Shown: in pieces, positions 7,699-36,288 of the stretch
How the letters are laid out: every line of letters begins with the position of its first letter
Numbering within the stretch: the first letter of the stretch is position 1
From: Siphonodentalium dalli
Taxonomy: Eukaryota; Mollusca; Scaphopoda; Gadilida; Siphonodentaliidae
Assembly (NCBI GenBank): GCA_032622095.1
Contig: CP136067.1
Span: 130,403,990-130,467,989, forward strand
DNA: 64,000 nucleotides
Direction: 5' to 3'
Made by a program: the position numbers and the translations under genes
Notes under the pieces: model-generated
What the model was told of the DNA's origin: nothing
The model's input: the letters and a program-made list of their open reading frames with translations, nothing else
Databases searched by the model: none

Positions 7699-7741
<43 letters not shown>
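7699..7741. repeat. (TA)n microsatellite
   Basis: About 21 TA units at the end of family A copy 1. A second family A copy (17.2-18.4 kb) also ends in TA/TG repeats. Confidence 0.97.
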
Positions 7742-10896: not shown

Positions 10897-11558
10897 CAGT
10901 AATAAAGTAATATATGTTGATGTTGTTGCATTCCATATGTATGCATGCATAGATGTGGGTGGTGGTAGAAAATACAGTTTTTAGTGAAATAAAGTGTTGC
11001 CGAGTCATACGCGCATAGCGCACAAAGGAACCACAGGCCCCCTGCAGCTGAATAAATGGTCACAACAGGAGTCTGTTTCCATATATGCATAAACTGGGTG
11101 CTAATATGGTATTTTGATTTGCGAGTTCATCAGTGTGAACATAAGTAATGAATGTTGTCTTTGTTGTGAAAGCTGTACATTGAGTGTTAATCGAAGGAGT
11201 GCTGGTATACCCGGAAGATGGCGAATGGACGCAGTCTGACCTCCTGCCAGTGGGTATCGTTCAGTAGATTTGCAGGAACTCGATTAGAAAAACCACATTC
11301 CCGGGCCGGCACTACATGTAACACAGTGTAAAACAATACCCACGACGCCACATAGCGCTAGTTTAATCTTTCAATTGAGTGTAAATCTGATGAAAGTTTG
11401 TATAAAATATAAAAATTAGCTCGAAGCGCGCTTTTTCAATATCATAATGTGCGCTCCTCACACACATCCGCTCCCAAATAAAGGCTCCTGAATGGAGCAT
11501 GTTTCAGTTAGTACATATAGTTATAAAGCATTGTATATTGTGTTGCGTTACATGCTTA
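10897..11558. other. spacer between the inverted arms
   Basis: A 662-bp single-copy loop between the arms. It starts with sequence resembling 14,250-14,540 (CATGCAT-ACGTGGG, GGTAGAAA-TACAGTTT, GTGAAATA-AGTGTT) and contains TTGTCTTTGTTGTGAAAGC, resembling family A at 31,250. The arms therefore appear to sit inside an older repeat. No gene is visible. Confidence 0.5.
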
Positions 11559-14031: not shown

Positions 14032-14154
14032 TCATACTGTATGGAGTCATTGTCGTATATAATATGGTCGCCGATAAATATACTATTGAATTTTGACGGC
14101 ATGACTTTGAATCACGAAAATATTTAATTTAGACAATTTTCATGGGCACATAAA

Positions 14155-14250
14155 ATAACGGTATGGGACCGTCAAACTGATGAAACGATATTGGACCGTA
14201 GATTATGACGGCCCGAAACCGTCGAACCGACAGCAATTTCTAACAGTGTA
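14155..14250 (+). repeat. additional ACGGT/ACCGT-rich element terminus
   Basis: Repeated ACGGT / GACCGT motifs (ACGGTATGGGACCGTC, GGACCGTAG, GAAACCGTCG) run up to TTTCTAACAGTG, the same terminal phrase that closes the inner ends of both inverted arms. Arrays of short subterminal motifs next to a fixed end are typical of DNA transposons, where transposase binds. The superfamily is unknown. Confidence 0.5.
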
Positions 14251-14689
14251 CATGCATATACGTGGGTCGGGGTAGAAAGTACGGTTTGGCTGCTGAATAA
14301 AGACTCCAAATGGGGGTGGGGTCTGTTCAAGATAAATATGTGCGCGAAGCGCACATGCACACCAAGGGTCATATGCCTCCTCCGCCTTGAATACATATTC
14401 CAGAATTGCGTTTGTTTCAGTTAGTATATAGTAATACAGTAATATGCTGATTTTGTTTCGTTCCATGTATGCATGCGTATATATGGGGTAGGCGCATAAA
14501 TACAGTTTGTAGTGAAATAGAGTGTTCCCACGCGCATGCATGGAATGACACAAATGACAACAAAAATAGAGAGACGCGTGACCATTCCATTTTTATCTAA
14601 TACAGAGATGAGAAATATTTGTTCATGACCGCGGGCACCAGAAAGAAACAAGGATTAGTTATATACCCGTCATTTTGTGACGGGCAATC
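14250..14689. other. dispersed-repeat DNA, no gene
   Basis: Resembles the 10,897-11,050 spacer in short phrases such as GTTTCAGTTAGTA and TGTATGCATGCGTATA. Overlapping minus-strand frames here have no recognisable protein content. Confidence 0.4.
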
Positions 14690-15030
14690 TCCTAGTAGCT
14701 ACATAATACTCTATGATTCGACACAATAATGGTCGTGTGCGACGTGGTTACTGAGAATTACTGTCACAGGCAAACCAGATAGATTTTAATCGGTATGACT
14801 TTATCCGAAATGTTCAACATAAAGAAGCATATGTTGAATTTTCAACACACTTACATTATTTGCCGTAAATGTGACAACCAATATGACAGCTATAGTTACA
14901 ATTTCAGATCCTAATGATATTTATTACATGTTATATGTAATAATAGCAACCACACGCATGCCGTTCGTTATTTGCGTACAGGCTTGACAACTGTGTAGAC
15001 ACTATTACACCGGAAGTCGTGATATCGCCG
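14690..15030. repeat. dispersed repeat 'family A', upstream part of copy 2
   Basis: Aligns with 31,342-31,636 in the first 2,765-bp unit. Shared stretches include GTGCGACGTGGTTACTGAGA, GATTTTAATCGGTATGACTT and GGCTTGACAACTGTGTA. The match stops near 15,020 and resumes near 17,050, so about 2 kb lies in between. Confidence 0.7.
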
Positions 15031-17040
15031 GTATTGTGATGGTTCTTGACTGATTTGTTACGGTTCCTTATGATCAAAAATAATCATTTTCGGGACATTA
15101 TAGATGTCTTGAATACATTAGACATTCCCAAACGAACATGATGGACTATATGAAGGGAGAGCTGGCTCAAAAAGATATCAGCCCAATATATATGACGCAT
15201 ATCTCATGACGGCAGATAATAGATAGATAAATGTCAACATATGTATTTTACTAAAATGTTTTTTTTGATTTCAGGGAATCCACATGTAACTATACAAATT
15301 GTAACAATAAATTGAATAAATTAAAACAAAAACCGAACAGAGGCATGAATACGAGCCGTTTTATCGAAACCTGAACTTTAGATCACAATTAACTCTGATA
15401 TAGCTTGTTAAGTTTGTAATTATCAGCATGTAATTACTGAAAATCAAGCCATGTAAACGTAATTCCTTTGCTTTCGGTGGCATATCGACTGTGAAACACA
15501 TTCTGAACACGAACACTGAGTATAACATATACCCGTGTTATTATTCGGTACAGTAGCTGATGAAATATCCCAACATGGTTGATAATTTGGAGCATTAGTC
15601 TCATAATACCAACTTAATATTAGTGCTACGGTTCTATTCCAATGCAATCACGACTGTTACGGTTCTCTGCATGATATTTAGTCCAACATGTTCTGCACTT
15701 TGGGCAAGTACAGTTTTGTGTATCAGATGGTTCAAACCGGATAATGACTGTAGCGTATGCTATCTACATAATCCAGCATGGATATTAATAAATAAGTTTA
15801 TAGCTGCCTATGGTATCACATAAGATTAAGTGACATTACCTTCACTTAGATTGGCAGAGAAAACATACATATTGGAAGTCATGTGGTGTTTAGGATAATA
15901 TGTAGTCACGTTCGCCCATATTATTGACCCAATGAAATTAGACTGCTCATGTCATGATATTATGATCGTTTTAAACGGACACGGCTCATTGCGGCTTCAA
16001 AATTATGTCTGGATGATTTGGTAGTATGTATCAAAGTGTTTGCAAAATACAAGAACTATTGATATATAAACCGGCGTCCTATGCTCTGAGAAATACTTAC
16101 CCATGGTCCCAGCCCTTTTCCAGTTGTCTCCTATTTTGTGCACAGAAGTGAAACAAACGCTCTTTGTTTCTACCACAGTTACCAAGAATAGCCTAATACG
16201 GATAGACCATTTATGTTCCATGCCATGCAAATGGCTATTGTTGTTTGGAACCCAAACATCGGGTTCAAAGTTGTATTTTTCAGTACTCCAATGCGGTTTC
16301 TTGGACATAATTTTGCTGCTCGTAGAAAGGTAGGACAAGTGTTTGTCGACCTATTTCTATATCGGGAAAACTTTAAAGCGAATATTATTACGTGTATTGT
16401 GGAGCGCACACCGCAAATGCGTAAGTAATCCTAAAATAGAGTCGAAAAGAACTTAACTACAAACTATATATCATTATACGAACTGGGTAAATAGAGTCAG
16501 ACTCACATCATCGTTCATACTGCTTCCAGGTGCAATTACAACTGTGGGCGTCGCGTCAGAACTGAACTGTTCAATCTCCTTTTTGGCGAGAAAATGAGAT
16601 ATTGGAATCTTTCGAGTCGGCGCGGAATTTCCTGTCCAAATATCTTGTCTAACGCATACAACATTTGAATGACAGGCTGTGTAAATATTAGTTTGTCTTA
16701 TACGGTCAATCGAAATCGGATTTCGGTATCGATGTTTTCGAATTTAGCACGCTACTTCCGGTTTGATCAGGGACACAACTGTGTGGAGATTGATAAAGCG
16801 CGGAGTCATCAATATACCAAGGCGCTGAATTGTTAGTTTGGTTTAGGCAAATTACGTTGATTAGTTCAACGATACCATTGAGTACGTGGTCACGTGACAT
16901 AATGTTTTGTTTTTCTGGCTAGATTCTTCATTGAACTAGTGAATTATTACCACCAAGACAGCATTCTATCGGATGTAGAGGGAAATATATATCGCACTCT
17001 TCTAGTGTTCGCTGAATATGCTGTAGCTTGGGAAAGCTGG
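15031..17040. other. unassigned 2-kb segment inside family A copy 2
   Basis: Absent from the homologous position in the 2,765-bp units, where the flanking matches are only about 10-20 bases apart. It is either an insertion here or a deletion there. Overlapping frames at 16,003-16,428 on both strands resemble no known family. No TIRs or tail were identified. Confidence 0.4.
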
Positions 17041-18370
17041 CATTTTCATCAAATAGATTTGTCTCTGATCTTGACGGCGGAATTTCACCCTCCGCATAAG
17101 GGCGCTCGGTTGACATTCCGATCTCGAGCAGGCGATAATAAATTTCATTGACTCATTCAAGCGCCGGCGACACCTGAATAATTTACTTACATATTTCCCA
17201 AACAATCGACTCGTGCTGCCCTCATTTGCATCAATCACACATACTCAACTATAGATAAAAAACCATATTCCACATTGCTATGCGGCTTACGCATTGTGGC
17301 ATGCTAACGACATAGTCAATGGCAGCATGTGATGTCACTTTAAACAATAAATAATCATCCAATATTCATCTTGCAACCAATTATGCATATATGTACGGGT
17401 TTGACAAAGCATCGTGATGATAGAGATGAAATCAGAAGAGAGGATTGGACACCAAACCTGAGGCTTTTATAAAAGTGTTAAACATTTTAGAACCAAGAGT
17501 GTTTGGTGAGAAGATTACGTTGCATGATCTTTTCAAGTAGAAATAATTCATCATATGGATTTTTTTAAATTCCACAATTATTATTTCCTTTAAATTATAT
17601 ACATGATACGACAAAACCTCTTTATGGTAGGTAATGAGATGCATATGTCACTGGCATCTGATAAGTGTTTCATTAATTTTACCTCCATACTACAAAATAC
17701 TAATACTAACTAATTATATTAGCACTCGCACAAATCGTACAAAACATCCATTATGTATAGTGTCATTCCTTAAACACAAATTTTCCTCGACCAGTAGCCA
17801 GCCTCGTTCTAGTCCGATAATCTCTGGAAGGCAATACATATTACGTACCTCAAATCTTATCACCATTTAAATACATTTGTATCGTCATCTTGATTTCATG
17901 TGTGTTGTTCTATTGTATTGGGAGAGGGGCTTCATAAGTTGTAAAAACTTGTGCCCCAATCCCCTTTGTATATTATGCAAATAAAATATGTTTCAAGTCA
18001 AGTCATCTGATATGCAGCTGGAATGCTGGAATATAACAATAGACCAGTACAATTATTGCGGCTATATATTTACTGATTAGACAACATGTCCACCTTGTAC
18101 GTTATCTGAAATTCAGAATGTCACAGTACCAGTACCAAATTCTACCCTATTCCCCAGAAAAAAAATACCAGTGGTGTATACATTGGGATTTCACCCAACA
18201 ATAATTATGACTACATAGTCAGCAGACTCTGAGGGTGTGAATACTGAATGCCATGCAGTTAAGCACATATGTGAAGACGGACATATATTTCACACGTCAA
18301 TACCATTTATTTCTGTCCCTTTTCTGAATAGTAATCTGCCAAGCTGTGCCACATTAAGATCAAAGGCCTG
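17041..18370. repeat. dispersed repeat 'family A', downstream part of copy 2, with empty MITE site
   Basis: Matches 6860-7698 and 31,650-32,960 (for example TTTGTCTCTGATCTTGAC, AAGTAGAAATAATTCATCA, AATCTGCCAAGCTGTGCCAC). A single TTAA at 17,478-17,481 sits exactly where the 2,765-bp units carry a TTAA-flanked MITE, so this copy preserves the empty target site. Confidence 0.7.
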
Positions 18371-18400
18371 ATATATATGTGTGTGTGTGTGTATATATAG
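18371..18400. repeat. TA/TG microsatellite at the Foldback element's left edge
   Basis: (TA)n-(TG)n-(TA)n directly precedes the left TIR at 18,401. The element may have inserted in this simple repeat, which hides any target-site duplication. Confidence 0.9.
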
Positions 18401-18616
18401 ATCTTATTTTGTGATAGGTACCCACAACCCGCGACCACCGCGACCCGTTACCTGCGTTACCCATATACGTTACTGTCCGATTTGGACGGTAATGCGCTTG
18501 AAATGGATGCAAATTTCAAATATTCATTCTCCAGACGATATTCTGATGAACTTCACCTTGAAATATTAACAAAATGTTCACACAGTAAACCCCCTTTGTA
18601 CCGCTTTCGCAGTAAT
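18401..18616 (+). repeat. left terminal inverted repeat of the Foldback element
   Basis: 216 bp, inverted match to 30,464-30,679. It contains the GC-rich phrase ACCCGCGACCACCGCGACCC and the small inverted repeat GTCCGATTTGGAC. The inner end, GCAGTAAT, is followed by the LINE insertion. Confidence 0.9.
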
Positions 18617-18878
18617 CATAATGCTTTATTCTCTGATCCAGGTTACATGATAGGATATTGAGACAGAAGTATATACAAAGAGATGAAGCATATAAACAAT
18701 ATTTACATCCGGTTTTACATGGTCTCAAAACCTTACATACAATTACATGTGCAATTTATATAATAAGTGTGTTGCTGTCGAGATAACGGGTTTTATTACA
18801 TTTATATGTTGTGTATCATGTGTATATGGTAGATTCATTGCTTATGCGATAACAACAACAACAACAACTTCAACCACG

Positions 18879-19535
18879 TTATGTGCTGCGAGTCTTTTCT
18901 ACTTCACTAAATATAGTTTTGATAAAAGTACATAACTTGCGTAGGAAATGTGGGTCATTTGAGTTCAGAACGTCACTCATTATTACTACATTAGCCCGTT
19001 CAGCATGTCTATTTTGGATTAGATGAGATCTTTGAGTCTTGAATTTGTTACATTCTAAAAGGTAATGAAATTCATCTCCAATTTGACTCTTGCTACACAA
19101 AATACATTTCCTGTCCTTATGGTCTGTGTTATCCCATCTTCCGGTTTCGATTGGTAATTTATGGTTGGATGTTCGAAATTTACATAAAATTGTTCGATTT
19201 TTGTAGTTCAGTAGGTCGAGATATTTCTCAAAGTAAATTTCGTGTTTGAATATCTGGTAAATTTCCCCCCTACTGGAACCGTTGTTCATATCAGCTCTCC
19301 AGGTTAATTGATTTATTATACTACAACGCACATAATCCAGAAATTGGTTCGGGTTTTGTATTCTTTGAGCATCTATTAAGTGGGATTGATTACACGAAGA
19401 GAGAATCTCTCGAATTTTCAGGTTCCACTTGAAAGATTTCGTGTCATTGCCATTTAGTAGACATTCAGATAAATCAAACAATATCTTCCCAATTCGATTT
19501 GTATTCATGTTTTTCAGGTGTACCCAGTATTTCAT
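18879..19535 (-). pseudogene. LINE ORF2 C-terminal domain with zinc knuckle
   Basis: Same frame as the preceding piece, separated by two nonsense codons (19,638-19,640 and just upstream of 19,535). It contains the post-RT finger CILCSKSQIGDEFHYLLEC (C-x2-C-x9-H-x4-C), common at the C-terminus of this LINE group, and ends EVEKTRST. About 260 bp of 3' UTR follows to 18,617, with AATAAA near 18,627. Confidence 0.85.
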
Positions 19536-19637
19536 TAATCGTACTTTGATTTCAATTTATATGGGTTGTCTACCTGATTCGCCGTACACCATATAGTCTG
19601 GTGTAGACTGCTTCAGGTTCATAACATGCTTGCAGAA

Positions 19638-20162
19638 TTATTTGTGAACTTTCTCGATAATATTGTTGTCACTAAACCCCCAAATTCCACTGCCGTATAG
19701 AAGAACCGGCAACACGCACAAGTCGAATAATTCAAATGTACTTTTTACAGATAGACAATTTAAACGTGATTTACTAATAACAGCATACATTGCACGCGTC
19801 CCCTTGTTTGATAAAATCTTTTTGGCTTCCGAGTAGGAACCAGATTTTGTCTGTATTATGCGAAGGTAGTTAAATTTTTTTACGATTTCTATTTCTTTCT
19901 TATCGTATGTGAATCGGGTATTTTTTGGCGCGCTTCGCTTCGATACCAATAAAATCTTTGTTTTCTCAACATTGACGGTCATTTTCCACTTCTCGCAATA
20001 TCGGGCGAAAATATCAAGTTCATTTTGTAACCTTTTGGGGGTTTCTGCCATTAAGACCGTGTCATCGGCATATAAAATTAGTAACAGTTTTAAGTATATA
20101 TTCAAGTGTTCCTGGATATGCAAGGATAGTTTTTGGAGTCCAGGTGCGCCTTGCGCAGTCAT
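19638..20162 (-). pseudogene. LINE ORF2 continued, YADD motif and thumb
   Basis: Continues the RT after the frameshift: LLILYADDTVLMAETPKRLQNELDIF (catalytic YADD, motif C), KMTVNVEKTKILLVSKR (motif D) and a thumb region KKFNYLRIIQTKSGSYSEA. It ends at NIIEKVHK followed by an in-frame stop at the position where the next residues (FCKHVMNLKQSTPDYMVYGESGR) continue without a gap, so the stop is a point nonsense mutation. Confidence 0.88.
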
Positions 20163-21676
20163 AAACGCTTCCAGATCGTTAAGGTAAATTGTAAATAGGA
20201 GAGGGGATAGGTTTCCCCTTGTCTAACGCCTAAAAGGCATGGGAAGGCTGAGGTCAAGCTATTTCCTAACCGGACACGAGATTTAATATTCGAGTACATG
20301 TTTTTAACAACTCTTAGAAATCTTCCATTTATTCCGGCTAGTAGCAACTTATGCCAAAGACCCTGTATCCATACTCTATCAAAAGCGTTCTCGAAGTCAA
20401 TGAATGCACAATAAAGGTTTATATTCAACTTTCTAGTAATTTCGGTCAGCATGTGTAATATGAAGATGTTATCAGCTGTTGAGTATCCTTTTCGAAACCC
20501 AGCCTGATTTTCAGGTATGGTTTCGCTGTCTTCAATATACGCCGATAATCTATTTGTGAGAATTTTGGTGAATAGTTTTCCAAAACAGCTTAATATTGTG
20601 ATAGGTCTGTAGTTTTTTGGGTCATTTGAGTCGCCCTTATTTTTATAGATAGGTATAATTACTCCTATGCCCCAAGAATCTGGTATACAACCGGTTTCCA
20701 TTACAAGGTTAAAAGTTCGTAAAAATATATTATGCAGATTCTCTGGGGCTGATTTAAGGTATTCGTTCAGTAATTTGTCTTCTCCTGGCGATTTGTCATT
20801 CTTCAAAGAGTGTAACGCGGTTTTCAATTCCTGCATTGTTATCGGTTTGTCTAATGTGTCATTTGTTCCTATCACTAAGTCATCCTGTAAGATCCTATAG
20901 TCATCTTCATACTCTGTACCATTGAGTATCTTAAAAAAAATTTCTAACATTTGAATATCAATATTTGAAGTTGGGCTCTTGCTTCGGCTGTTTATTTTTT
21001 TCCAGAACTGTTTGGAATTACTATGTTTCAGTTTAGACATGTGTAAAGAGAACTTTTCGCCGTGAATACTAATGGATTGTTTTAATTCGCGTTTATATTC
21101 CCTAGCCTTTTCTCTCATGTATAGTCTTGATCTATGGTTTCGCCCTGTTCTGTGGCTCCTAACTGCACGCCGGTATTCTTTGCGGGCAGATCTACAACTA
21201 CGTGAGAACCAAGGTTTATTATTGTTAGGTTCCTTTTGTTTTCTGTGCAAATGTTGTTTCGTCGCAAATGTATCGTCTACCGCATCAAGTATTGTTTTTG
21301 AAATAAGATTGTTCACTTCGTCTAAGTGAGATGAACTCAATTTGTTATCTTGTATACTATCAAGGAGGGATATCAATGTACTTATTGCGACGGGATCCAC
21401 GTTCCATTGAAACTCACATACTTTAGTTGGGTCCCATTTTCGGTGACTTTTCGGTAGTGAATCGCTTGTTTCTATAGTTATTATTTCAGTTAATGGCACA
21501 TTTATAGTGAACATAATCGGACAGTAACAATCGGACCACAAAGGGTTAAATTCTCCAACCGCAAAGTCATTTAAAATTGGCACGGCTTCTAGTGAACAAA
21601 CCATATAGTCTATTACTGAACAGTCCCGACATGTATAATCCCCAATCTTGGAGTCGGTGCCTATCCGGCCGTTCAT
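20159..21676 (-). pseudogene. LINE ORF2, endonuclease C-terminus and reverse transcriptase
   Basis: A 505-codon frame. Residues 1-60 are the end of an APE-type endonuclease (GDYTCRDCSVIDYMVCS, then WSDCYCPI in the SDH position, with H replaced by Y/C). RT blocks follow: KSPGEDKLLNEYLK, NYRPITILSCFGKLFTKILTNRL, NQAGFRKGYSTADNIF, FIDFENAFDRVW (motif A) and GVRQGETYPLS (motif B, broken). Near 20,206 one base is missing, so the true continuation SPLLFTIYLNDLEAFM lies in the next frame and the final ~15 residues here are frameshift product. Clade: CR1/Jockey-like by eye. Non-functional because of truncation and the frameshift. Confidence 0.9.
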
Positions 21677-21713
21677 GATAAAGAAGCCATTGTTTTAAGC
21701 AAGCCATTGTAAT

Positions 21714-23740
21714 AAGCAACCGCATTCATCGCTACATGCGGGGGTAGGGTACCCGAGTCTCAAACAGAGATGCGCACATCACCCCTCATGTTCTATAGTG
21801 AAACAACGTAGACTACTCTATCGCAATCTAATTGTAATTAGACTGAAACTTTGCCTATACGGTCATCTAAATTTAACCGCCTGCGTGCTAATGTCGCTAT
21901 ATGCGGCCAAATGGTATCAGTTTTTAACACAGAAATGCGCACGAACTAAAAGACCAGGGCACCTATCATTGCCTGATATGATACACAATATACTACTTTA
22001 TTGTGATATAACTATAAATAGGCTGTCTTTTACCGTATAAGGCCATAACAACTTAACAATTGTTAATAAGTAACCGCATTTATCGCTAAATTCGGGAAAA
22101 GGGTACCAGATTCTCAAACATAAATGCGCACAAATTAAGTACCCGTGGCAGCTATCATGACATATTGTGATACATAGTATCATACTCTATCACGATCTAA
22201 CTGCAAATAGGCTGGCTTTTTCCGTATAAGGCCATACAAACTTCACAATTGTGTGTTAATAAATACGACATGTATCGATATATATATACGGGAAAAGAGT
22301 ACCCGATTCTCACACATAAATGCGCACAAAGTAAAACACTCGGGGCACATATCGTGACCTATTCTGATACATAATGCACCACTCTATCATGACCTAACCG
22401 CTAATAGGCTGTCTTTTACCGTATAAGGCCATAACACTTTAATTGTTTGTTAATACGTAACCGCATTTATCGCTATATATGCGGGAAAAGGGTACCCAAT
22501 TCTCAGTAAAAAATGCGCACAAACTAAAGCAACCGCGGTACCTATCATGACATATTGTGATACACATTATATGACTCTATCATTATCTAACTGCAAACAG
22601 GCTGTATTTTATCGTATAAGGCCATAACAACTTAATTGTTTGTTAACAAGTAACCGCATTTATCGCTATATGAGGGAAAAGGGTGCCAGATTTTCACACA
22701 AAAATTCGCACAAAGTAAAGCAACCACTGCACCTATCATGGCATCGTGTGATACACAATATATCACTCTATCATGATCTAAATGCAAATAGGCTACCGTT
22801 TACCGCATAAGGCCATAACAACTTAATTGTTGGTTAATAAGTAACCGCATTTATCGCTATATGCGGGAAAAGGGTACCCGATACTCAATCATAAATGCGC
22901 ACAAACTAAAGAAACCGCGGCACCTATCATGACACATTGTGACACACAATACAATACTCTATTACGACCTAACTGCAAGTAGGCTTTTACCTAAAAAGCC
23001 ATAAAAATTTAACAACTGTTTGTCAACAATTAACCGAATTTATCGCCATATGCGGGTAAAGGGTGCCCGATTTTCAAACATAAATGCGCACAAACTAAAG
23101 CAACCGCGGCATTTACCATGACACATTGTGATACACAATATATCACTCTATCATGATATAACTGCATATATGCTGTCTTATACCGTATAAGGTCATAACA
23201 ACTTAATTGTTTGTTAACAAGTAACCGCATTTATCGCTATATGAGGGAAAATGGTGCCCAATTTCACACAAAAATGCGCACAAAGTAAAGCACCCGCGGC
23301 ACCTATCATGGCATGGCGTGATATACAATATATCACTCTATAATGATCTAACTTCAAATGGGCTGTCTTTTACCGTATAAGGCCGTAACAACTTAATTGT
23401 TTGTTACTACGTAACCACATTTATCGCTATTTGCGGGAAAAGGGTACCCGATTCTCAATCAAAAATACGCACAAACTAAAGCACCCGCGAAACCTATCAT
23501 GGCATGGTGTGATACACAATATATCACTCGATCACAATCTAACTGCAAATCGGCTGCCTTTTACCGTATAAGGCCATCACAACTCAATTGTTTGGTAATA
23601 AATAACCGAATTTATCGCTCAATGCGGGAAAGGGGTACCCGGTTCTCAATCACAAATGAGCACAAACTAAAGCAACCGCGGCACCTATCATGACACATTG
23701 TGCTACACAATACAATACTCTATCACGACCTAACTGCAAA
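21714..23740 (+). repeat. ~190-bp satellite, left arm (about 10-11 monomers)
   Basis: Monomers are marked by CCGCATTTATCGCTATATGC near 22,078, 22,460, 22,651, 22,844, 23,032 and 23,222, giving a ~190-bp period. Each carries ACTGCAAATAGGCTG, CCGTATAAGGCCATAAC, GGGAAAAGGGTACCC and CTATCATGACA. Open frames are incidental. Confidence 0.95.
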
Positions 23741-23778
23741 AAGGTAAAAGGCAACCTATTTGCCGTTAGGTCGTGATA
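23721..23778. repeat. palindromic centre where the satellite reverses orientation
   Basis: TATCACGACCTAACTGCAAA (23,721-23,740) faces its near-perfect complement at 23,759-23,778 across an 18-base loop. Pairing continues outward for well over 100 bp. No unique central sequence remains, so there is no room for a transposase. Confidence 0.9.
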
Positions 23779-26700
23779 GAGTATTGTATTTTTTGTCACA
23801 ATGTGTCATGATAGGTGCCGCGGTTGCTTTAGTTTGTGCGCATATAGCGATAAATGCGGTTACTTATTAACAAACAATTGTTAAGATTGTATGGTCTTAC
23901 ACGGAACAAGGCAGCCTATTTGCAGTTAGATCGTGATTTTGCAGTGCATTATGTACCTCAATATGTCATGATAGGCGGTCCTGTTGCTACATTTTGTGCG
24001 CATTTTTGTGTGGGAATCGGGTGCCCTTTCTCGCATGTAGCTATAATAGCGGTTTTACTTATTACAACAAAAACATTTGTATGGCCTTTTGTGTTAAAAG
24101 GCAGCCTATTTGCAGTTAGATAGAGTAGTATGTTATGTATCACAATATGTCATGCTAGTTGCCACGTGTGGTTTAGTTTGTGCGCATTTATGTATGAGAA
24201 TCGGGTACCCTTTTCCCGCATATGGCGATAAATGCGGTCACTTGTTAACAAACAATTGTTAAGTTTTTATGGCCTTTTCGGCAAAAGGCAGTCTATTTCC
24301 AGTTAGGTCGTGATAGATTATTGTATTATGTATCACAATATGTCATGATAGTGCCGCGATTGATTTAGTTTGTGCGCATTTATGAGTGAGAATCGGTTAC
24401 CCTTTCCCCGCATATAGCGCTAAATGCGGTTACTTATTAACAAACAATTGTTAAGTTTTTTATGGCTTAAAATGGTAAAAGGCAGCCTACTTGCAGTTAG
24501 ATCACGATAGTGATATAATGTGTATCACAATATGTCATGATGGGAGCCGAGGTTTCTTTAGATTGTGCGCATTTTTTATTGAGAATCGGGTACCCTTTTC
24601 CCGCATATAGAGATAAATTCGGTTACGTATTAACTGTAAACAATTAAGTTGTTATGGCCTAATACGGTAAAAGACAGCGCATTTGCAGTTAGATAACGAT
24701 AGAGTAGTGTATTGTGTATCACATCCGGCCATGATAGATGCCACGGGTGCTTTACTTTGTGCACATTTATGTGTGAGAATCGGTCATCCTTTTCCCTCAC
24801 ATAGCGATAAATGCGGTTACTTGTTAACAAACATTCAAGACGTTATGGCCTTATACGGTAAAATACAGCCTAATTGCAGTTAGCCCATGATAGTGTGATA
24901 TATTGTGTATCACACCATGCCATAATAGGTGCCGCCGGTGCTTTACTTTGTGCGCATTTTTTATTGACACTCGGGTACTTTTTACCGCATATAGCGATAA
25001 ATGCGGTTGCGTATTAACAAACAATTAAGTTGTTATGGCCTTAAACGGTAAAAGACAGCCTACTTGCAGTTAGCCCATGATAGTATGATATATTGTGTAT
25101 CACACAATGCCATAATAGGTGCCGCGGGTGCTTTACTTTGTGCGCATTTCTGTGTGAAAATCAGGCACCCTTTTCCCTCACATAGCGATAAATGCGGTTA
25201 CTTGTTAACAAACAATTAATTTGTTATGGCCTTATACAGTAAAATACAGCCTACTTGCAGTTAGCCCATGATAGTGTGATATATTGTGTATCACACCATG
25301 CCATAATAGGTGCCGCCGGTGCTTTACTTTGTGCGCATTTTTTATTGACACTCGGGTACTTTTTACCGCATATATCGATAAATGCGGTTGCGTATTAACA
25401 AACAATTAAGTTGTTATGGCCTTAAACGGTAAAAGACAGCCTACTTGCAGTTAGCCCATGATAGTGTGATATATTGTGTATCACACCATGCCATAATAGG
25501 TGCCGCGGGTGCTTTACTTTGTGCGCATTTCTGTGTGAAAATCAGGCACCCTTTTACCTCACATAGCAATAAATGCGGTTACTTGTTAACAAACAATTAA
25601 TTTGTTATGGCCTTATACGGTAAAATACAGCCTACTTGCAGTTAGCCCATGATAGTGTGATATATTGTGTGTCACACCATGCCATAATAGGTGCCGCGGG
25701 TGGTTTACTTTGTGCGCATTTTTTATTGACACTCGGGTACTTTTTCCCGCATATATCGATAAATGCGGTTGCGTATTAACAAACAATTAAGTTGTTATGG
25801 CCTTATACGGTAAAAGACAGCCTACTTGCAGTTAGCCCACGATAGTGTGATATATTGTGTATCACACCATGCCGTAATAGGTGCCGCGGGTGCTTTACTT
25901 TCTGCGCATTTCTGTGTGAAAATCAGGCACCCTTTTCCCTTACATAGCGATAAATGCGGTTACTTGTTAACAAACAATTAATTTGTTATGGCCTTATATG
26001 GTAAAATACAGCATATTTGCAGTTAGATCATGATAGAGTAATATAATGTGTATCACAATCTGTCATGATAGCAGCCGTGGTTGATTTAGTTTGTTCGCAT
26101 TTTTTATTGAGAAATGGGTACATTTTCCCGCATATAGCGATAAATGCGGTTACGTATTAACAAACAATTAAGTCGTTATGGCCTTATACGGTAAAAGACA
26201 GCATATTTGCAGTTAGACTATGATAGTGTGATATATTGTGTATCACACCATGCCATAACAGGTGCCGCGGGTGCTTTACTTTGTGCGCATTTCTGTGTGA
26301 AAATCAGGCACCCTTTTCGCTCATATAGCGATAAATGCGGTTACTTGTTAACAAACAATTAAGCTGATATGGCCTTATACGGTAAAAGACAGCCTATTTG
26401 TAGTTAGATCATGATAGTGATATAGTTTGTATCACAATGTGTCATGATATGTGCCGCGGTTGCTTTGGTTTTTTGCCCATTTTGTGTGAAAATCGGGCAC
26501 CCTTTTTCCTCATATAGCGATAAATGCGGTTACTTGTTAACAAACAATTAAGTTGTTATGGCCTTATACGGTAAAATACAGCCAATTTGCAGTTAGATCA
26601 TGATAGAGTGATATAATGTGTATCACAATGTGTCGTGATAGGTGCCGCGGTTGCTTTAGATTGTGCGCATTTTTTATTGAGAATCGGGTACCCTTTTCCC

Positions 26701-29700
26701 GCATATAGCGATACATGCGGTTACGTATTAACAAACAATGTGTCATGATATGAGCCGCGGTTGCTTTTGTTTGTGTGCATTTATGATTGAGAATCGGGTA
26801 CCATTTTCCCACATATAGCAATAAATGCGGATACATATTAACAAACAATTAAGTTGTTATGACCGTATACGGTAAACGGCAGCCTACTTGCAGTTAGATC
26901 ATGGTGATAGAGTGATATATTGTGTATGACAATGTGTCATGATATGTGCCGCGGTTGCTTTAGTTAGTGCGCATTTTTGATTGAGAATCGGGTACCCTTT
27001 TCCCGCATATAGCGATAAATGCGGTAACTTATTAACCTATAATTAAGTTGTTATGGCCTTATACGGTAAAGGGTAGCCTATTTGCAGTTAGATCATGATA
27101 TAATGATATAATGTGTATCACAATATGTCATGATAGGAGCTGCGGTTTCTTTAGTTTGTGCGCATTTTTGTGTGAAAATCGGGCACCCTTTTCCCGCATA
27201 TAACGATAAATTCGGTTACTTGTTAACAAACAATTGTTAAGTTTGTATGGCCTATTCGGTAAAAGGCAACCTATTTGCAGTTAGGTCGTGGTAGCGTGTT
27301 GTATTGTGTTTCACAATATGTCATGATATGTTCCGCGGTTTCTTTGGTTTGTGCGCATTTTTGTGTGAAAATCGGGCACCCTTTTCCCTCATCTAGCGAT
27401 AAATGCGGTTACTTGTTAACAAACAATTAATTTGTTATGGCCATATACGGTAAAATACAGCCTAGTTGCAGTTAGATCATGATAGTGTTATATAATGTGT
27501 ATCACAAACTGTCATCATAGGAGCCGCGGTTGCTTCAGTATGTGCGCATTTATGATTGAGTATCGGGTACCCTTTTCCCGCATATAGCGATAAATGCGGT
27601 TACTTATTATCAAACAATTAAGTTGTTATGGCCTTATACGGTAAAGGGTAGCCTATTTGCAGTTAGACCATGATAGAGTGATATACTGTGTATCACAATA
27701 TGTCATGATAGGAGCTGCGGTTTCTTTAGTTTGTGCGCATTTTTGTGTGAAAATCGGGCACCCTTTTCCCGCATATAGCGATAAATTCGGTTACTTGTTA
27801 ACAAACAATTGTTAAGTTTGTATGGCCTTTTCGGTAAAAGGCAACCTATTTGCAGTTAGGTCGTGGTAGCGTGTTGTATTGCGTTTCACAATACGTCATG
27901 ATATGTTCCGCGGTTTCTTTAGTTTGTGCGCATTTTTGTGTGAAAATCGGGCACCCTTTTTCCTCATATAGCGATAAACGCGGTTACGTGTTAACAAACA
28001 ATTAAGTTGTTATGGCCTTATACGGTAAAATACAGCCAATTTGCAGTTAGATCATGATAGAGTGATATAATGTGTATCACAATGTGTCGTGATAGGTGCC
28101 GCGGTTGCTTTAGATTGTGCGCATTTTTTATTGAGAATCGGGTACCCTTTTCCCTCATATAGCGATACATGCGGTTACGTATTAACAAATAATTAAGTTG
28201 TTGCGGCCTTATGCGGTAAAATACAGCCAATTTGCAGTTAGATCATGATTGAGTGATATAGTGTGTATCAAAATGTGTCATGATATGTGTCGCTGTTGCT
28301 TTTGTTTGTGTGCATTTATGATTGAGAATCGGGTACCATTTTCCCGCATATAGCAATAAATGCGGATACATATTAACAAACAATTAAGTTGTTATGGCCT
28401 TATACGGTAAACGGCAGCCTATTTGCAGTTAGATCATGATAGAGTGATATATTTTGTATGACAATGTGTCATGATATGTGCCGCGGTTGCTTTAGTTAGC
28501 TCGCATTTTTGATTGAGAATCGGGTACCCTTTTTCCGCATATAGCGATAAATGCGGTTATGTATTAACAAACAATTAAGTTTATATGGCTTTATACGGTG
28601 AAAGACAGCCTATTTGCAGTTATATCACGATATATTAGTTTATTGTATATCACATCAGGCCATGATAGGTTCCCTGTGTTATTTACTTTGTGCGCATTTA
28701 TGTGTGATAATCGGGTACTCTTTCTCGTACATAGCGACAAATACGGTTACTTATTAACAAACAATTAAGTTGTTATGGCTTTATACGGTAAATGGCAGCC
28801 TATTTGCAGTTAGATTATGATAGAGTGATATATTGTGTATCACACCAAGCCATGATAGGTGCCGCGGGTGCTTTACTTTGTGCGCATTTTTATGTGAAAA
28901 TCGGGGACCCTTTTCCCTCATATAGCGATAAATGCGGTTACTTGTTAACAAACAATTAAGTTGCCATGGCCTTATACGGTAAAAGACAGCCCATTTGAAG
29001 TTAGATAATGATAGAGTGATATAGTGTGTATCACAATGTGTCATGATATGTGCCGCGTTTGCTTTTGTTTGTGCGCATTTATGTGTGAGAATCGGGTACC
29101 CATTTCCCTCATATGGCGATAAATTCGGTTACTAAGTCTTGTAGACAAATAATTGTTAAGTTGTTATGGCCTTTTCGGTAAAAGTCAGCCTACTTGCAGT
29201 TAGGTTGTGATATAGTATTGTATTGTGTGTCACAATGTATCATGATAGGTGCCGCGGTTGCTTTAGTTTGTGCGCATTAATGATTGAGAATCGGGTACCC
29301 TTTTCCCGTATATAGCGATAAATGCGGTTACTTATTATCAAACAATTAAGTTTTTATGGCCTTATACGGTAAACGGCAGGCAATTTGCAGTAAGATCATG
29401 ATAGAGTGATCTATTGTGTATCACAGCATGCCATGATATGTGCCGCGGGTGTTTTACGTTGTGTGCATATTTGTGTGAAAATATGGCACACTTTTCCCTC
29501 ATATAGCGATAAATGTGGTTACTTGTTAACAAACAATTAAGTTGTTATGGCCTTATACGTAAAATACAGCCCTATTTGCCCTATTAGATCATGATAGAGT
29601 GATATAATGTGTATCACAATGTGTCATGATAGGTGCCGCGGTTGCTTTAGTTTGTGCGCATTTTTTATTGAGAATCGGGTACCCTTTTCCCGCATATAGC

Positions 29701-30463
29701 GATAAATGCGGTTACGTATTAAAAAACAACTAAGTTGTTATGGCCTTATACGGTTTATAAAAGACAGCCTATTTGCAGTTAGGTCATGATAGAGTAGTGC
29801 ATTATGTATCAGAATAGGTACGATAGGTGCCCCGAGTGTTTTACTTTGTGCGCATTTATGTGTGAGAATCGGGTACTCTTTTATTATATATATAGCGATA
29901 AATGTTGTTATTTATTAACACACAGTTGTTAAGTTTGTATGGCCTTATACGGAAAAAGGCAGCCCATTTGCAGTTAGATCGTGATAGAGTATAATATTAT
30001 GTATCAATATATGTCATAATAGGTGTCACGAGTGCTTAATTTGTGCGCATTTATGTTTGAGAATCGGGTACCCTTTTCCCGCATATAGTGATAAATGCGG
30101 TTACTTATTAACAATTGTTAAGTTGTTATGGCCTTATACGGTAAAGGGCAGCCTATTTGCAGTTAGATCACAATATCATACCAGGCCATGATAGGTGCCC
30201 TGGTCTTTTATTTCGTGCGCATTTCAATGTGAAAAACTGATACCATTAATTTGGCCGCATATAGCGACATTAGCACGCAAGTGGTTACATTTAGATGACC
30301 TTATAGGCAAAGTTTCAGTCTAATTGCAGTTAGATTGCGATAGAGTAGTCTATGTTGTTTCAATTTAGAACATGAGGGGTGGCATGATTTCTTCCGATTG
30401 AGCGCATCACTGTTTGAGACTCGGGTACCCTACGCCCGCATGTAGCGATGAATGCGGTGGCTT
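23759..30463 (-). repeat. ~190-bp satellite, right arm (about 35 monomers)
   Basis: The same monomer in reverse orientation (GCGATAAATGCGGTTACT every ~190 bp). It shows local higher-order structure: a ~381-bp dimer at 24,880-25,990 and a ~570-bp trimer at 27,060-27,920. A partial deletion within a monomer lies near 26,735. The GGTACCC phrase occurs both here and in the TIR. Confidence 0.95.
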
Positions 30464-30679
30464 ATTACTACGAAAGCGGCACAAAAGGGGTTAACTGTGT
30501 GAGCATTTTGTTAATATTTCAAGGTGAAGTTTATCAGAATATCGTCTGGAGAATGAATATTTGAAATTTGCATCCATTTCAAGCGCATTACCGTCCAAAT
30601 CGGACAGTAACGTATATGTGTAACGTAGGTAACGGGTCGCGGTGGTCGCGGGTCGCGGGTACCTATCACAAAATAAGAT
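30464..30679 (-). repeat. right terminal inverted repeat of the Foldback element
   Basis: Inverted partner of 18,401-18,616, uninterrupted at its junction with the satellite. The outer end, AAAATAAGAT, is followed by (CT)n(TA)n. Confidence 0.9.
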
Positions 30680-30685
30680 ATCTTT

Positions 30686-30687
30686 CC

Positions 30688-30741
<54 letters not shown>

Positions 30742-30742
30742 C

Positions 30743-30768
<26 letters not shown>
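30686..30768. repeat. (CT)n(TA)n microsatellite
   Basis: (CT) run followed by two (TA) blocks separated by GC. It lies between the Foldback element and the first 2,765-bp unit. Confidence 0.95.
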
Positions 30769-30773
<5 letters not shown>

Positions 30774-33523
30774 TGAAAATTAAGAAAGGTATCCGTTCAT
30801 TGTTGAATATTTATTACATGTATGTACATACAGCTATACCGGTTTCGACACATTCAAATATATATATAACCCGCCGTATGTGTATCTGTTTATATTCGTG
30901 TGTGTATAGGTATGGGTGTCCAAATCGGTCACGCTTTTGGCGCGTTTATGCATGTAACTGTTCAACCGTGCGTCCAGCATGACCAAATTGGAACCACGGC
31001 CTATAATGTGCTGTGTAAGATGACTCACCAAATATTACGCCGATTTATAAAAGAAAACCTAAGATAGAAGATGGTCTCCAAATGCCGTATTAGCGCTCAA
31101 CAAGGCGCTCATCCAAGGCGTTGTTGGGAATGGGCGCTATACATTACTTTGTCAGTTCAGGTTGAGTGTGAATAGAAGTAATGCAGAATTAATGGGTGCT
31201 AAATGGTGTTTTAAATTGCCACTGTAGTGTTAATATAAGTAATATATATTGTCTTTGTCATGAAAGTTGTGTATTGAGTGTGAAATTAAGATAAAATGTC
31301 CTGATTGTTACATACCACTCTATTGATACAACGCCGGCCGAGTGCGACGTGGTTACTGAGAATTACTGTCACCGGCAAACCAGATAGATTTTAATCGGTA
31401 TGACTTTATCCGAAATGTTCAACATAAACAATCATTATGTTGAATTTTTAACACATACACATTGCTTTTATATCCGTAAATTTGCCGCCATTATGACAGC
31501 TATAATGACAATTTCAGACCCTAATTAAATTTATTGTATATCTAGGTAATAATAGCAATCACACGCATGCTGTGCGTTATTTGCGAATACGTTACGCGAA
31601 GGCTTGACAACTGTGTATGCACTGTTACGACGGAAGTAACAATCAAGGAGATTTGTCTCTGATCTTGACCGGAATGTCACCCTCTAATATGAGGGCGCTC
31701 GAGTGACATTCCGATATCGAGTGGGCGAGAACTAATCATTTACGTACATATTTGGCATAACATACTACTTGTGTTGCCCTCGTTTGCATCGACCGTACAT
31801 ATTCGACTATAGGCAAAGAATCATATTCGATTTTTGGCTTACGCACGGCAACATAGGACGTTACCATACACAATAAGTAGTCCTCCAATATTCATCTTAC
31901 AGTCAATTAACCATAAATGCAAGGACTTGACAAATAATAGTGTGGTTTGAGATGAAAACATAATTGAGGATTGGGCACCAATCCTGAGGCTTTGAAAAAC
32001 TTAACCCTTTACCAAACAGAAGGGCCCTGTGCCAATGCATTCTCTTATATATGCGAGTCGACCATAGGTCGCCTCGCATATATAAGAGAATGCATTGGCT
32101 TAACACATTAAAAATTATAAAATTGTTAAAGAATGTAAGAAAAAATGGTAAAAAGTGTTAAAAAAAGATTTTTTTTAGGCCAATGCATTCTCTTATATAT
32201 GCGAGGCGACCTATGGTCGACTCGCATATATAAGAGAATGCATTGGCACAGGGCCCTTCTGTTGGGTAAAGGGTTAAGTTAGTGGAACCAACAGTGATTG
32301 GTGGGATGCTTACGTTGTATGGTCTTTGAAAGTAGAAATAATTAATCAAATTGATGTTTCAATATTCACAATCCAGACAGATTATAATATCTAGAGAGAT
32401 TATAAAATCACATGTCGCGCAATCCCTCGAACAATGATATAATCACAATGAAATGTCCGAGCAGACATTTAGTGAGTGCTGGCAGTGTGGCTCAGCTCTC
32501 TCTGTAATTCTCAATGCAGCTCATATCCGAAATGCATTGAGGATTCACCCAATGAGCGTGGCCAAAAAACAAAAAACAAACATAACAAATAATATAATAT
32601 AAGCTAACCGGGGGTCACTGCTTGTAAATATATATTTGTATTATATATCTGTAAATATGTTTTGTTCATGTACTAATGCACTTATGTTCTGTGTTGATTT
32701 CCAGCTAAGGCATAATAAACTTATCAAACAATGAGTTATGTCGTTTAAATTATGTATACGATATTCGAACATGTGTCCATGGCCTGCAGTCACCAACAAA
32801 ACCTGATAATCGGAGTGGATGGGACATATATGTCACCGGCATCCGGTGTATGGTATGCAGCTGAAATGCGGGCATATAACTATATTCCAGTACATTAATT
32901 GCGTCTCTATATTTACTACGTAGACAACGTGCCCATCGTGTACGTTATCTGAAATTCATGCCGGGTTGATTGGGTGGTTGAAACAGCCGGAAACAGTTGT
33001 ACACACTCTCTCGGATTTGGTTTACTGAAGACATTAAAATACCTGATATAGGCTGTGTAACACTTATATAAACATATCTTAACTACAAAAACACCATAAA
33101 TATATAATTTAATAGGACCTCATTTAGGCCACAGTGGAAATGGCTGGTGACATTCTACAAGTTATGGTGCGTTGAATAATTATGGGATAGTAAGGTGAAA
33201 AACTGTTTTCCTGATACCATTCGGCATGGAACATTTCAGAAAAAACTTGAGTGAGATCTGGAATCAAGTATGTTCGTCAAAATGGTAAGTAAAAACTGAC
33301 TAGAGACCAGCGAGTGTGGAGACTTTAACAATCTTGTAAATAGAACATTTTAGAAAATTTTAAATAAACCAGATCGTTTTTTTGTCCGAAATCGCATATT
33401 TAGCCATTACATATTTGGTTGATGGGGGACTTGATTCTCACTGGGTACGTGCAATACTGTTTTGTCAAATTTGATGCATATGCCTTATATCAGCGCTAGT
33501 GTGCGCAGCTGCTACCAGCTGAT
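30759..33523 (+). repeat. 2,765-bp tandem unit, copy 1
   Basis: Begins in TA repeats then AGTTTGAAAATTAAG and ends CTACCAGCTGAT. It contains family A segments (31,340-31,640 and 31,650-32,960) and a TTAA-flanked MITE. It differs from copies 2 and 3 at a few sites (for example GGGCCCTGTGCC where the others have GGGCCATGTGCC). Short frames at 30,773-30,982 and 31,903-32,106 recur in each unit and look non-coding. Confidence 0.95.
32005..32273. mobile_element. piggyBac-like MITE with palindromic arms, copy 1
   Basis: 269 bp, flanked by TTAA on both sides (32,001-32,004 and 32,274-32,277). The ends, CCCTTTACC...GGTAAAGGG, match the CCYT-type start known for piggyBac elements, which insert at TTAA. 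Each ~100-bp terminal arm contains a nearly perfect 67-bp palindrome (32,032-32,098 and 32,180-32,246), so the element can fold as two hairpins or one long foldback. No coding capacity; it would depend on a transposase elsewhere. Confidence 0.8.
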
Positions 33524-36288
33524 ATATATATATATAGTTTGAAAATTAAGAAAGGTATCCGTTCATTGTTGAATATTTATTACATGTATGTACATACAGC
33601 TATACCGGTTTCGACACATTCAAATATATATATAACCCGCCGTATGTGTATCTGTTTATATTCGTGTGTGTATAGGTATGGGTGTCCAAATCGGTCACGC
33701 TTTTGGCGCGTTTATGCATGTAACTGTTCAACCGTGCGTCCAGCATGACCAAATTGGGACCACGGCCTATAATGTGCTGTGTAAGATGACTCACCAAATA
33801 TTACGCCGATTTATAAAAGAAAACCTAAGATAGAAGATGGTCCCCAAATGCCGTATTAGCGCTCAACAAGGCGCTCATCCAAGGCGTTGTTGGGAATGGG
33901 CGCTATACATTACTTTGTCAGTTCAGGTTGAGTGTGAATAGAAGTAATGCAGAATTAATGGGTGCTAAATGGTGTTTTAAATTGCCACTGTAGTGTTAAT
34001 ATAAGTAATATATATTGTCTTTGTCATGAAAGTTGTGTATTGAGTGTGAAATTAAGATAAAATGTCTTGATTGTTACATACCACTCTATTGATACAACGC
34101 CGGCCGAGTGCGACGTGGTTACTGAGAATTACTGTCACCGGCAAACCAGATAGATTTTAATCGGTATGACTTTATCCGAAATGTTCAACATAAACAATCA
34201 TTATGTTGAATTTTTAACACATACACATTGCTTTTATATCCGTAAATTTGCCGCCATTATGACAGCTATAATGACAATTTCAGACCCTAATTAAATTTAT
34301 TGTATATCTAGGTAATAATAGCAATCACACGCATGCTGTGCGTTATTTGCGAATACGTTACGTGAAGGCTTGACAACTGTGTATGCACTGTTACGACGGA
34401 AGTAACAATCAAGGAGATTTGTCTCTGATCTTGACCGGAATGTCACCCTCTAATATGAGGGCGCTCGAGTGACATTCCGATATCGAGCGGGCGAGAACTA
34501 ATCATTTACGTACATATTTGGCATAACATACTACTTGTGTTGCCCTCGTTTGCATCGACCGTACATATTCGACTATAGGTAAAGAATCATATTCGATTTT
34601 TGGCTTACGCACGGCAACATGGGACGTTACCATACACAATAAGTAGTCCTCCAATATTCATCTTACAGTCAATTAACCATAAATGCAAGGACTTGACAAA
34701 TAATAGTGTGGTTTGAGATGAAAACATAATTGAGGATTGGGCACCAATCCTGAGGCTTTGAAAAACTTAACCCTTTACCCAACAGAAGGGCCATGTGCCA
34801 ATGCATTCTCTTATATATGCGAGTCGACCATAGGTCGCCTCGCATATATAAGAGAATGCATTGGCTTAACACATTAAAAATTATAAAATTGTTAAAGAAT
34901 GTAAGAAAAAATGGTAAAAAGTGTTAAAAAAAGATTTTTTTAGGCCAATGCATTCTCTTATATATGCGAGGCGACCTATGGTCGACTCGCATATATAAGA
35001 GAATGCATTGGTACAGGGCCCATCTGTTGGGTAAAGGGTTAAGTTAGTGGAACCAACAGTGATTGGTGGGATGCTTACGTTGTATGGTCTTTGAAAGTAG
35101 AAATAATTCATCAAATTGATGTTTCAATATTCACAATCCAGACAGATAATAATATCTAGAGAGATTATAAAATCACATGTCGCGCAATCCCTCGAACAAT
35201 GATATAATCACAATGAAATGTCCGACCAGACATTTAGTGAGTGCTGGCAGTGTGGCGCAGCTCTCTCTGTAATTCTCAATGCAGCTCATATCCGAAATGC
35301 ATTGAGGATTCACCCAATGAGCGTGGCCAAAAAACAAAAAACAAACATAACAAATAATATAATATAAGCTAACCGGGGGTCACTGCTTGTAAATATATAT
35401 TTGTATTATATATCTGTAAATATGTTTTGTTCATGTACTAATGCACTTATGTTCTGTGTTGATTTCCAGCTAAGGCATAATAAACTTATCAAACAATGAG
35501 TTATGTCGTTTAAATTATGTATACGATATTCGAACATGTGTCCATGGCCTGCAGTCACCAACAAAACCTGATAATCGGAGTGGATGGGACATATATGTCA
35601 CCGGCATCCGGTGTATGGTATGCAGCTGAAATGCGGGCATATAACTATATTCCAGTACATTAATTGCGTCTCTATATTTACTACGTAAACAACGTGCCCA
35701 TCGTGTACGTTATCTGAAATTCATGCCGGGATGATTGGGTGGTTGAAACAGCCGGAAACAGTTGTACACACTCTCTCGGATTTGGTTTACTGAAGACATT
35801 AAAATACCTGATATAGGCTGTGTAACACTTATATAAACATATCTTAACTACAAAAACACCATAAATATATAATTTAATAGGACCTCATTTAGGCCACAGT
35901 GGAAATGGCTGGTGACATTCTACAAGCTATGGTGCGTTGAATAATTATGGGATAGTAAGGTGAAAAACTGTTTTCCTGATACCATTCGGAATGGAACATT
36001 TCAGAAAAAACTTGAGTGAGATCTGGAATCAAGTATGTTCGTCAAAATGGTAAGTAAAAACTGACTAGAGACCAGCGAGTGTGGAGACTTTAACAATCTT
36101 GTAAATAGAACATTTTAGAAAATTTTAAATAAACCAGATCGTTTTTTTGTCCGAAATCGCATATTTAGCCATTACATATTTGGTTGATGGGGGACTTGAT
36201 TCTCACTGGGTACGTGCAATACTGTTTTGTCAAATTTGATGCATATGCCTTATATCAGCGCTAGTGTGCGCAGCTGCTACCAGCTGAT
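33524..36288 (+). repeat. 2,765-bp tandem unit, copy 2
   Basis: Nearly identical to copy 1 and closer still to copy 3 (it shares GGTACAGGGCCCATCTG in the MITE). The junction with copy 1 is CCAGCTGAT-ATATATATATATAG. Confidence 0.95.
34771..35038. mobile_element. piggyBac-like MITE, copy 2
   Basis: Carried within tandem unit 2, flanked by TTAA (34,767-34,770 and 35,039-35,042). One T shorter in the central T-run than copy 1. Confidence 0.8.

What the first reader, a model, noticed from the sequence alone, without database searches (positions are those of the whole stretch)
18401..30679. Giant Foldback element whose arms are satellite DNA
Seen directly: 216-bp TIRs, then ~190-bp satellite in opposite orientations on each side, meeting at a palindrome near 23,750 with only an 18-base loop. 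FB, TU and Galileo elements are known for tandem-repeat inverted arms, but arms of 2.0 and 6.7 kb made of 190-bp monomers with no central unique DNA would be an unusual extreme. It suggests satellite arrays may be seeded, moved and amplified by a TIR element.
Basis: partly seen in the sequence, partly recalled or inferred. Interest (0 to 1): 0.85.

Follow-up and report, generated by a model that had tools for sequence, protein, structure and literature searches.

The report
Foldback-like element with satellite arms
A 12-kb stretch of what looks like animal DNA is a large mirror-image structure built of satellite repeats between matching ends; it is most likely a non-coding 'foldback' jumping element, a kind already known to breed satellite DNA, with repeats paired across the mirror unusually clearly.

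Summary
The structure is real, with corrections. A 216-bp inverted pair (18401-18616, 30464-30679; 95.4%) bounds ~190-bp monomers, 11 pieces in one orientation and 37 in the other, turning at an 85-base palindrome (79/85) with an 18-base loop. But 18617-21708 is an inserted minus-strand LINE (RVT_1). Without it the arms stay homologous well beyond 216 bp: monomers 1-9 match rank for rank (91.4% in register, 80.9-84.8% at 24 other registers; 0 of 100,000 random pairings as good; 6 of 9 rank pairs are tree sisters). The inverted repeat is thus ~1.95 kb, 91.9% identical; only the inner right arm holds recent duplications. Best reading: a non-autonomous foldback-type DNA transposon, close in design to Tetris and to the longest Galileo copy, both published; so not a new kind. 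Not shown: transposase, clear target-site duplication, second copy. The genome search did not complete in 12 attempts, so mobility is inferred, and an inverted segmental duplication remains possible.

The parts
18401..18616 (+). left terminal inverted repeat, non-satellite part (starts ATCTTATTTTGTGATAGGTACCC; exact end uncertain by a few bases)
   Evidence: 95.4% over 216 bp to the reverse complement of 30464-30679
18617..21708 (-). nested LINE fragment (reverse transcriptase, frame broken; 5' truncation inferred); an intruder, not part of the original element
   Evidence: RVT_1 in 2 of 3 frames scanned, E 4e-19 and 5.7e-13; the arms' homology breaks here and resumes; GTAAT at 18612-18616 and 21709-21713
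21714..23740 (-). left satellite arm, monomers L1 (outer) to L11 (hinge)
   Evidence: profile hits, minus orientation
23656..23843 (.). hinge palindrome: 85-base arms 79/85 identical, loop 23741-23758
23759..30463 (+). right satellite arm, 37 pieces R37 (hinge) to R1 (outer), 34 of them at least 120 bp
   Evidence: profile hits, plus orientation
24798..26316 (+). dimeric higher-order block R31-R24, 381-bp period
   Evidence: R26/R28/R30 96-98%, R27/R29/R31 95-97%; TRF row 23839-26739 86% at 381 bp against 81% at 191 bp
26511..28532 (+). block duplications in the inner right arm (R11=R19, R13=R22, R14=R17, R15=R18)
   Evidence: 95-99% pairs; tree sisters
28729..30463 (+). outer right arm R9-R1, rank partners of L9-L1
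   Evidence: 91.4% in register, 0 of 100,000 random pairings as good
30464..30679 (-). right terminal inverted repeat, non-satellite part

Best explanation
It is a non-autonomous foldback-type DNA transposon without coding capacity of its own, whose long inverted repeats (~1.95 kb) consist of a 216-bp end and at least nine ~190-bp tandem repeats in fixed order, with no middle domain beyond more satellite and an 18-base loop. Shown from sequence: rank-for-rank homology of the two arms, the hinge, recent duplication confined to the inner right arm, and a nested LINE. Inferred: it was once moved by a transposase encoded elsewhere that recognises the ends (and perhaps the repeats, as in Galileo); the arms became copies of each other by an inverted duplication (fold-back priming) and/or arm-to-arm conversion; afterwards unequal exchange or slippage enlarged the inner right arm (28 pieces inside rank 9, against 2 on the left), and a LINE landed in the left arm.
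For: TIR pair. Register test over 26 blocks: offset 0 gives 91.4%, score 2465; offsets 2-25 give 80.9-84.8%, scores 1398-1731; offset 1 gives 91.5% only by opening 398 gap columns, score 1884, i.e. it re-finds the same register. Mean same-rank identity 0.907 over 9 ranks; 0 of 100,000 random pairings reach it (maximum 0.872); the same-rank partner is the best of 34 for ranks 1-4 and 7, and 3rd, 7th, 2nd and 3rd for ranks 5, 6, 8 and 9. Sisters in the tree for 6 of 9 ranks (1, 2, 3, 4, 6, 7), 4 of them (1, 2, 4, 7) at the tool's starred support. 13 within-arm pairs at 94% or more among 34 right-arm monomers, none among 11 left-arm pieces. Identity falls from the ends inwards (Spearman -0.81, p 0.005 on 10 points; -0.80, p 0.01 on the 9 monomers alone). 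Same design in Tetris and Galileo.
Against: No second copy seen: own genome not searchable, none in the rest of the window. No target-site duplication: best candidate AGATCT/AGATAT, 5 of 6; nothing of 7-11 bp with at most one mismatch; exact matches 3 bp or shorter. No transposase domain in the 28 of 33 frames of at least 110 aa that were scanned. No significant similarity between TIR and monomer (99 and 343 of 1000 shuffles as good for the left TIR, 107 and 175 for the right; terminal 40 bp 39 and 52 of 1000, uncorrected), unlike the 37-bp stretch reported in Tetris. Ranks 10 and 11 do not pair (0.79, 0.82), and rank 9 is not paired in the tree. The lower divergence of the TIR is marginal (10/216 against 145/1695, p 0.047).
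Confidence: 0.66

Rival explanations
1. An inverted segmental duplication: one chromosomal stretch, a satellite edge plus 216 bp of flank, was copied in mirror image; nothing ever transposed. The 216 bp are simply the flank that was included.
For: No target-site duplication and no known second copy; a hinge with a short loop fits fold-back duplication (established idea, recalled); satellite macro-dyads are reported in Tribolium (PMC13081366, passages).
Against: Homology stops within a few bases on both sides, next to unlike simple repeats. Copying from this hinge outwards predicts that hinge neighbours pair; L11/R37 do (0.926, 81 bp) but L10/R36 (0.758) and L09/R35 (0.746) lie below the mean of left-right pairs, 0.797: the mirror is kept from the outside. 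Later growth of the right arm could however have pushed the old partners apart.
Confidence: 0.25
2. The inversion at 23,741-23,758 is an assembly join of two satellite arrays or a palindromic read artefact.
For: Tandem repeats and palindromes are error-prone; reads are not available here.
Against: A read artefact should give near-identical arms at the hinge; they are 79/85 identical and beyond that unpaired. A chance join does not explain paired TIRs and rank-locked outer monomers.
Confidence: 0.07
3. Not exclusive with the best reading: the arms are actively mirrored. Arm-to-arm gene conversion through a hairpin overrides ordinary array homogenisation, so that each outer monomer evolves with its opposite number and not with its neighbours.
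For: 6 of 9 rank pairs are sisters; identity highest at the ends and longest exact run 86 bp, 13 of 2000 shuffles as long.
Against: One old inverted duplication followed by independent decay gives rank pairing too; 8.1% divergence with 16 gap events between the arms and the LINE present in one arm only argue against frequent recent conversion.
Confidence: 0.2

Closest known systems
Tetris (Drosophila virilis foldback transposon; PMC4079207: abstract, first part of Results, first part of Discussion)
   Same: Without conserved ORFs; long TIRs with an outer unique domain and ~220-bp internal tandem repeats of variable number; the repeats also form satellite arrays of up to 66 copies.
   Different: Tetris has a middle domain, an inner TIR domain and 8-10 bp target-site duplications, three structurally complete copies and further rearranged ones; its unique end is up to 866 bp. 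Here no middle domain and a 216-bp unique end; duplication and further copies not shown.
Galileo, longest copy 112 of Drosophila willistoni (PMC4168063, passages)
   Same: 9,021 bp (here 9,182 without the LINE); two long TIRs only, no transposase segment, ~140-bp tandem repeats in unequal number in the two TIRs, other TEs inside.
   Different: Galileo is a P-superfamily element, mostly with 7-bp duplications; its tandem repeats lie ~1.7 kb from the ends, here they begin after 216 bp. Arm lengths here differ more (2.0 against 6.7 kb of satellite). Sequences not compared.
Satellite macro-dyad symmetries of Tribolium (PMC13081366, passages)
   Same: Multi-kilobase satellite arrays in two opposite subarrays with defined inversion sites.
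   Different: Found in multi-megabase (peri)centromeric regions; words beginning with TIR do not occur in that text, and the passages seen mention no rank pairing. Here one bounded 12-kb unit.
FB (Drosophila melanogaster) and TU (sea urchin) foldback elements (recalled; PMC4079207 lists foldbacks of both organisms)
   Same: Inverted repeats made of tandem repeats, often with little or no middle (recalled).
   Different: Much shorter repeat units (recalled); sequences not compared.

Membership tests
Foldback-type DNA transposon | Long terminal inverted repeats containing internal tandem repeats | tested here: met
   Arms of 1,937 and 1,951 bp, 91.9% identical, nine ~190-bp repeats in register
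Foldback-type DNA transposon | Target-site duplication (7-10 bp in Galileo and Tetris) | tested here: inconclusive
   Best 5 of 6, AGATCT/AGATAT; none of 7-11 bp with at most one mismatch; flanks are simple repeats
Foldback-type DNA transposon | Several dispersed copies | not testable with these tools
   Own-genome search unanswered 12 times; none in the rest of the window
Foldback-type DNA transposon | Autonomous relative with transposase sharing the ends | not testable with these tools
   Same; in the window no transposase domain in 28 of 33 frames of at least 110 aa (5 simple-repeat frames not scanned)
Tetris | Internal repeat shares a stretch with the outer TIR domain (37 bp, ~80%) | tested here: not met
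   No significant match of TIR to monomer consensus
Galileo (P superfamily) | P/Galileo transposase or THAP-binding ends, 7-bp duplication | tested here: inconclusive
   No transposase domain found in the frames scanned and no 7-bp duplication; binding sites not tested, Galileo sequences not held
Satellite DNA | Tandem arrays of a monomer of ~150-200 bp | tested here: met
   48 monomer pieces, most of ~180-190 bp
Satellite DNA | Arrays outside this element, high genome abundance | not testable with these tools
   Genome search not answered; none outside the element in the window

The most novel reading that the evidence does not exclude
Mirror-locked satellite: in a foldback element each outer satellite monomer evolves together with the monomer of the same rank in the opposite arm (by hairpin-mediated conversion or repeated copying), while the inner part escapes the lock and amplifies in one orientation. 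Foldback elements could then be a source of satellite macro-dyads, which a 2026 paper (PMC13081366, passage) says are documented only in Tribolium.
Probability: 0.15. Interest if true: 0.72.

Novelty: new member of a known kind. Interest (0 to 1): 0.45.

Why it matters
It is a single locus in which the step from transposon arm to satellite array can be read monomer by monomer: the outer nine ranks are kept as a mirror, while the inner right arm has been amplified in dimers and blocks. If other copies exist with different arm lengths, one can test directly whether satellites are born inside foldback elements in this genome too, and whether the hairpin keeps the arms alike.

Tried and rejected
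Own-genome search for the 216-bp end: the same request was sent 12 times and never answered. Exact patterns from the TIR and the monomer in viral contigs: 0 and 0; little is to be learnt from that, since the window looks like animal DNA and near records may be left out. Rfam on the window: 0 families at the gathering score. TIR-to-monomer homology as the origin of the repeats: not significant. An empty site from the window paralogue of the left flank (7348-7708): beyond 7740 that copy shows no match to 30680-33521, so it gives no empty site. Copying of the left arm from the hinge outwards: L10/R36 and L09/R35 are only 0.758 and 0.746 identical, so not supported in its simple form. Organism: not determined; I judge it an animal from the LINEs, a weak Ras-like frame (E 0.0011, under Pfam's cut-off) and degenerate GGTTAGGGTTA repeats; this is inference.

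Papers: PMC4079207 outline and abstract, first of two parts each of sections 9 and 16; PMC4168063, PMC3688188 and PMC13081366 passages only; the others as search listings with the start of the abstract.

Full report
Observation. Self-comparison finds a 216-bp inverted pair, 18401-18616 and 30464-30679, 95.4% identical. Tandem repeats of ~191 bp fill 21.9-23.7 kb and 23.8-30.2 kb. A profile built from them gives 49 hits; with one 31-bp hit left out and the hinge hits cut, 11 pieces lie in minus orientation before the hinge and 37 in plus orientation after it. The hinge is an 85-base inverted pair, 79/85 identical, with an 18-base loop at 23741-23758. Neither the end nor the monomer is found in the rest of the window at E up to 1.

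Correction: a LINE in the left arm. Between 18617 and 21708 lie minus-strand frames, two of three with a reverse transcriptase domain (E 4e-19 and 5.7e-13; the third has no Pfam family), i.e. a non-LTR retrotransposon fragment; that it is 5'-truncated is my inference from its 3,092 bp and the lack of an endonuclease match. On its two sides the sequence resumes as in the right arm, with GTAAT on both sides (18612-18616, 21709-21713). Five bases is a short duplication, and the scan found two other 5-base matches nearby; the case for insertion rests on the resumed homology.

Correction: the inverted repeat is ~1.95 kb long. With the LINE left out, the two arms align for 1,937 against 1,951 bp at 91.9%, with 16 gap events. 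Tandem repeats can align in any register, so register was tested: monomers L1-L9 against 26 nine-monomer blocks of the right arm. Offset 0 gives 91.4% (score 2465); offset 1 gives 91.5% only by opening 398 gap columns (score 1884), the same register again; offsets 2-25 give 80.9-84.8%, scores 1398-1731. Same-rank pairs average 0.907, which 0 of 100,000 random pairings reach (maximum 0.872). The same-rank partner is the best of 34 for ranks 1, 2, 3, 4 and 7, and 3rd, 7th, 2nd and 3rd for ranks 5, 6, 8 and 9. In a tree of 45 of 48 pieces, 6 of 9 rank pairs are sisters (1, 2, 3, 4, 6, 7), four of them (1, 2, 4, 7) at starred support; ranks 5 and 8 are unresolved, and rank 9 is not paired. Ranks 10 and 11 do not pair (0.79, 0.82).

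Amplification. Among 34 right-arm monomers 13 pairs are at least 94% identical, all within R11-R31; among 11 left-arm pieces none. R24-R31 form a dimeric block (381 bp), R14-R15 recur as R17-R18, and R11 and R13 as R19 and R22. So the recent duplications are confined to one arm's inner part. That the left arm was also shortened is not excluded.

Mechanism. Shown: mirror order of the outer ranks, hinge, one-sided inner duplication, nested LINE. Inferred: mobilisation in trans by a transposase, by analogy with Galileo, whose transposase THAP domain binds near the end and in the internal repeats (PMC3688188, passages); origin of the mirror by fold-back priming or by arm-to-arm conversion. A fall of identity from the ends inwards (Spearman -0.81, p 0.005 on 10 points; -0.80, p 0.01 on the nine monomers) and one 86-bp exact run (13 of 2000 shuffles as long) fit conversion or constraint at the ends, but also paralogy among inner monomers. 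Simple copying from the present hinge outwards is not supported: L11/R37 are 0.926 identical over 81 bp, but L10/R36 and L09/R35 only 0.758 and 0.746, below the left-right mean of 0.797. Nothing in the anatomy shows that it is still mobile.

What is missing. No clean target-site duplication; no transposase domain in 28 of 33 frames of at least 110 aa; no second copy, because the genome tool did not answer in 12 attempts. The TIR is not visibly the source of the monomer. The flanks are simple repeats (TG/TA left, TC/TA right), where a duplication would decay quickly. I therefore say 'works like a foldback element' with more confidence than 'is a member of a named family'.

Comparison. Tetris (PMC4079207) is the closest in concept: its ~220-bp TIR repeats gave satellite arrays of up to 66 copies. 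Galileo copy 112 (PMC4168063) is the closest in size and form: 9,021 bp, TIRs 4,246 and 4,680 bp, ~140-bp repeats in unequal number, no transposase segment, other TEs inside. Satellite macro-dyads are described in Tribolium, and that paper states they are documented only in that genus. In the searches I saw no title or start of an abstract that reports rank-locked monomers in a foldback element; the library lacks most subscription papers, lists were capped, and four papers were opened.

Verdict. A real structure, most likely a new foldback family of a known kind, with the idea 'foldback elements seed satellites' already in print. What it adds: monomer-by-monomer mirror order plus one-sided inner amplification, readable in one locus.

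Noticed in passing
8300-14300: Second large inverted repeat: arms about 8806-10896 and 11559-13836, in BLAST pieces of 79.6, 87.8 and 91.3% identity, ~0.66 kb between them; no match to this TIR or satellite.
   Followed up: partly
30756-39053: Three head-to-tail copies of a 2,766-bp unit, 99.2-99.5% identical, starting 76 bp right of the element's end; each has an internal imperfect palindrome of ~283 bp (31998-32280 in the first).
   Followed up: partly
6899-7708, 14731-18378: Diverged pieces of the 2,766-bp unit and of each other, i.e. a dispersed repeat family; the element's left end lies at the simple-repeat tail of one copy.
   Followed up: partly
42919-46431: Another non-LTR retrotransposon on the plus strand: endonuclease-like frame (Exo_endo_phos 5.7e-05, 23.4 bits, just under the 24.5 cut-off) and RVT_1 frame (4.8e-14).
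   Followed up: no
51001-56100: 5 kb of degenerate GGTTAGGGTTA / GTCCCGTCCC repeats, G+C 0.47-0.52 per kb from 51 to 56 kb, against 0.34-0.45 elsewhere.
   Followed up: no
61861-62307: Minus-strand frame with a weak Ras-family match (E 0.0011, under the curated cut-off), perhaps a host small-GTPase exon.
   Followed up: no
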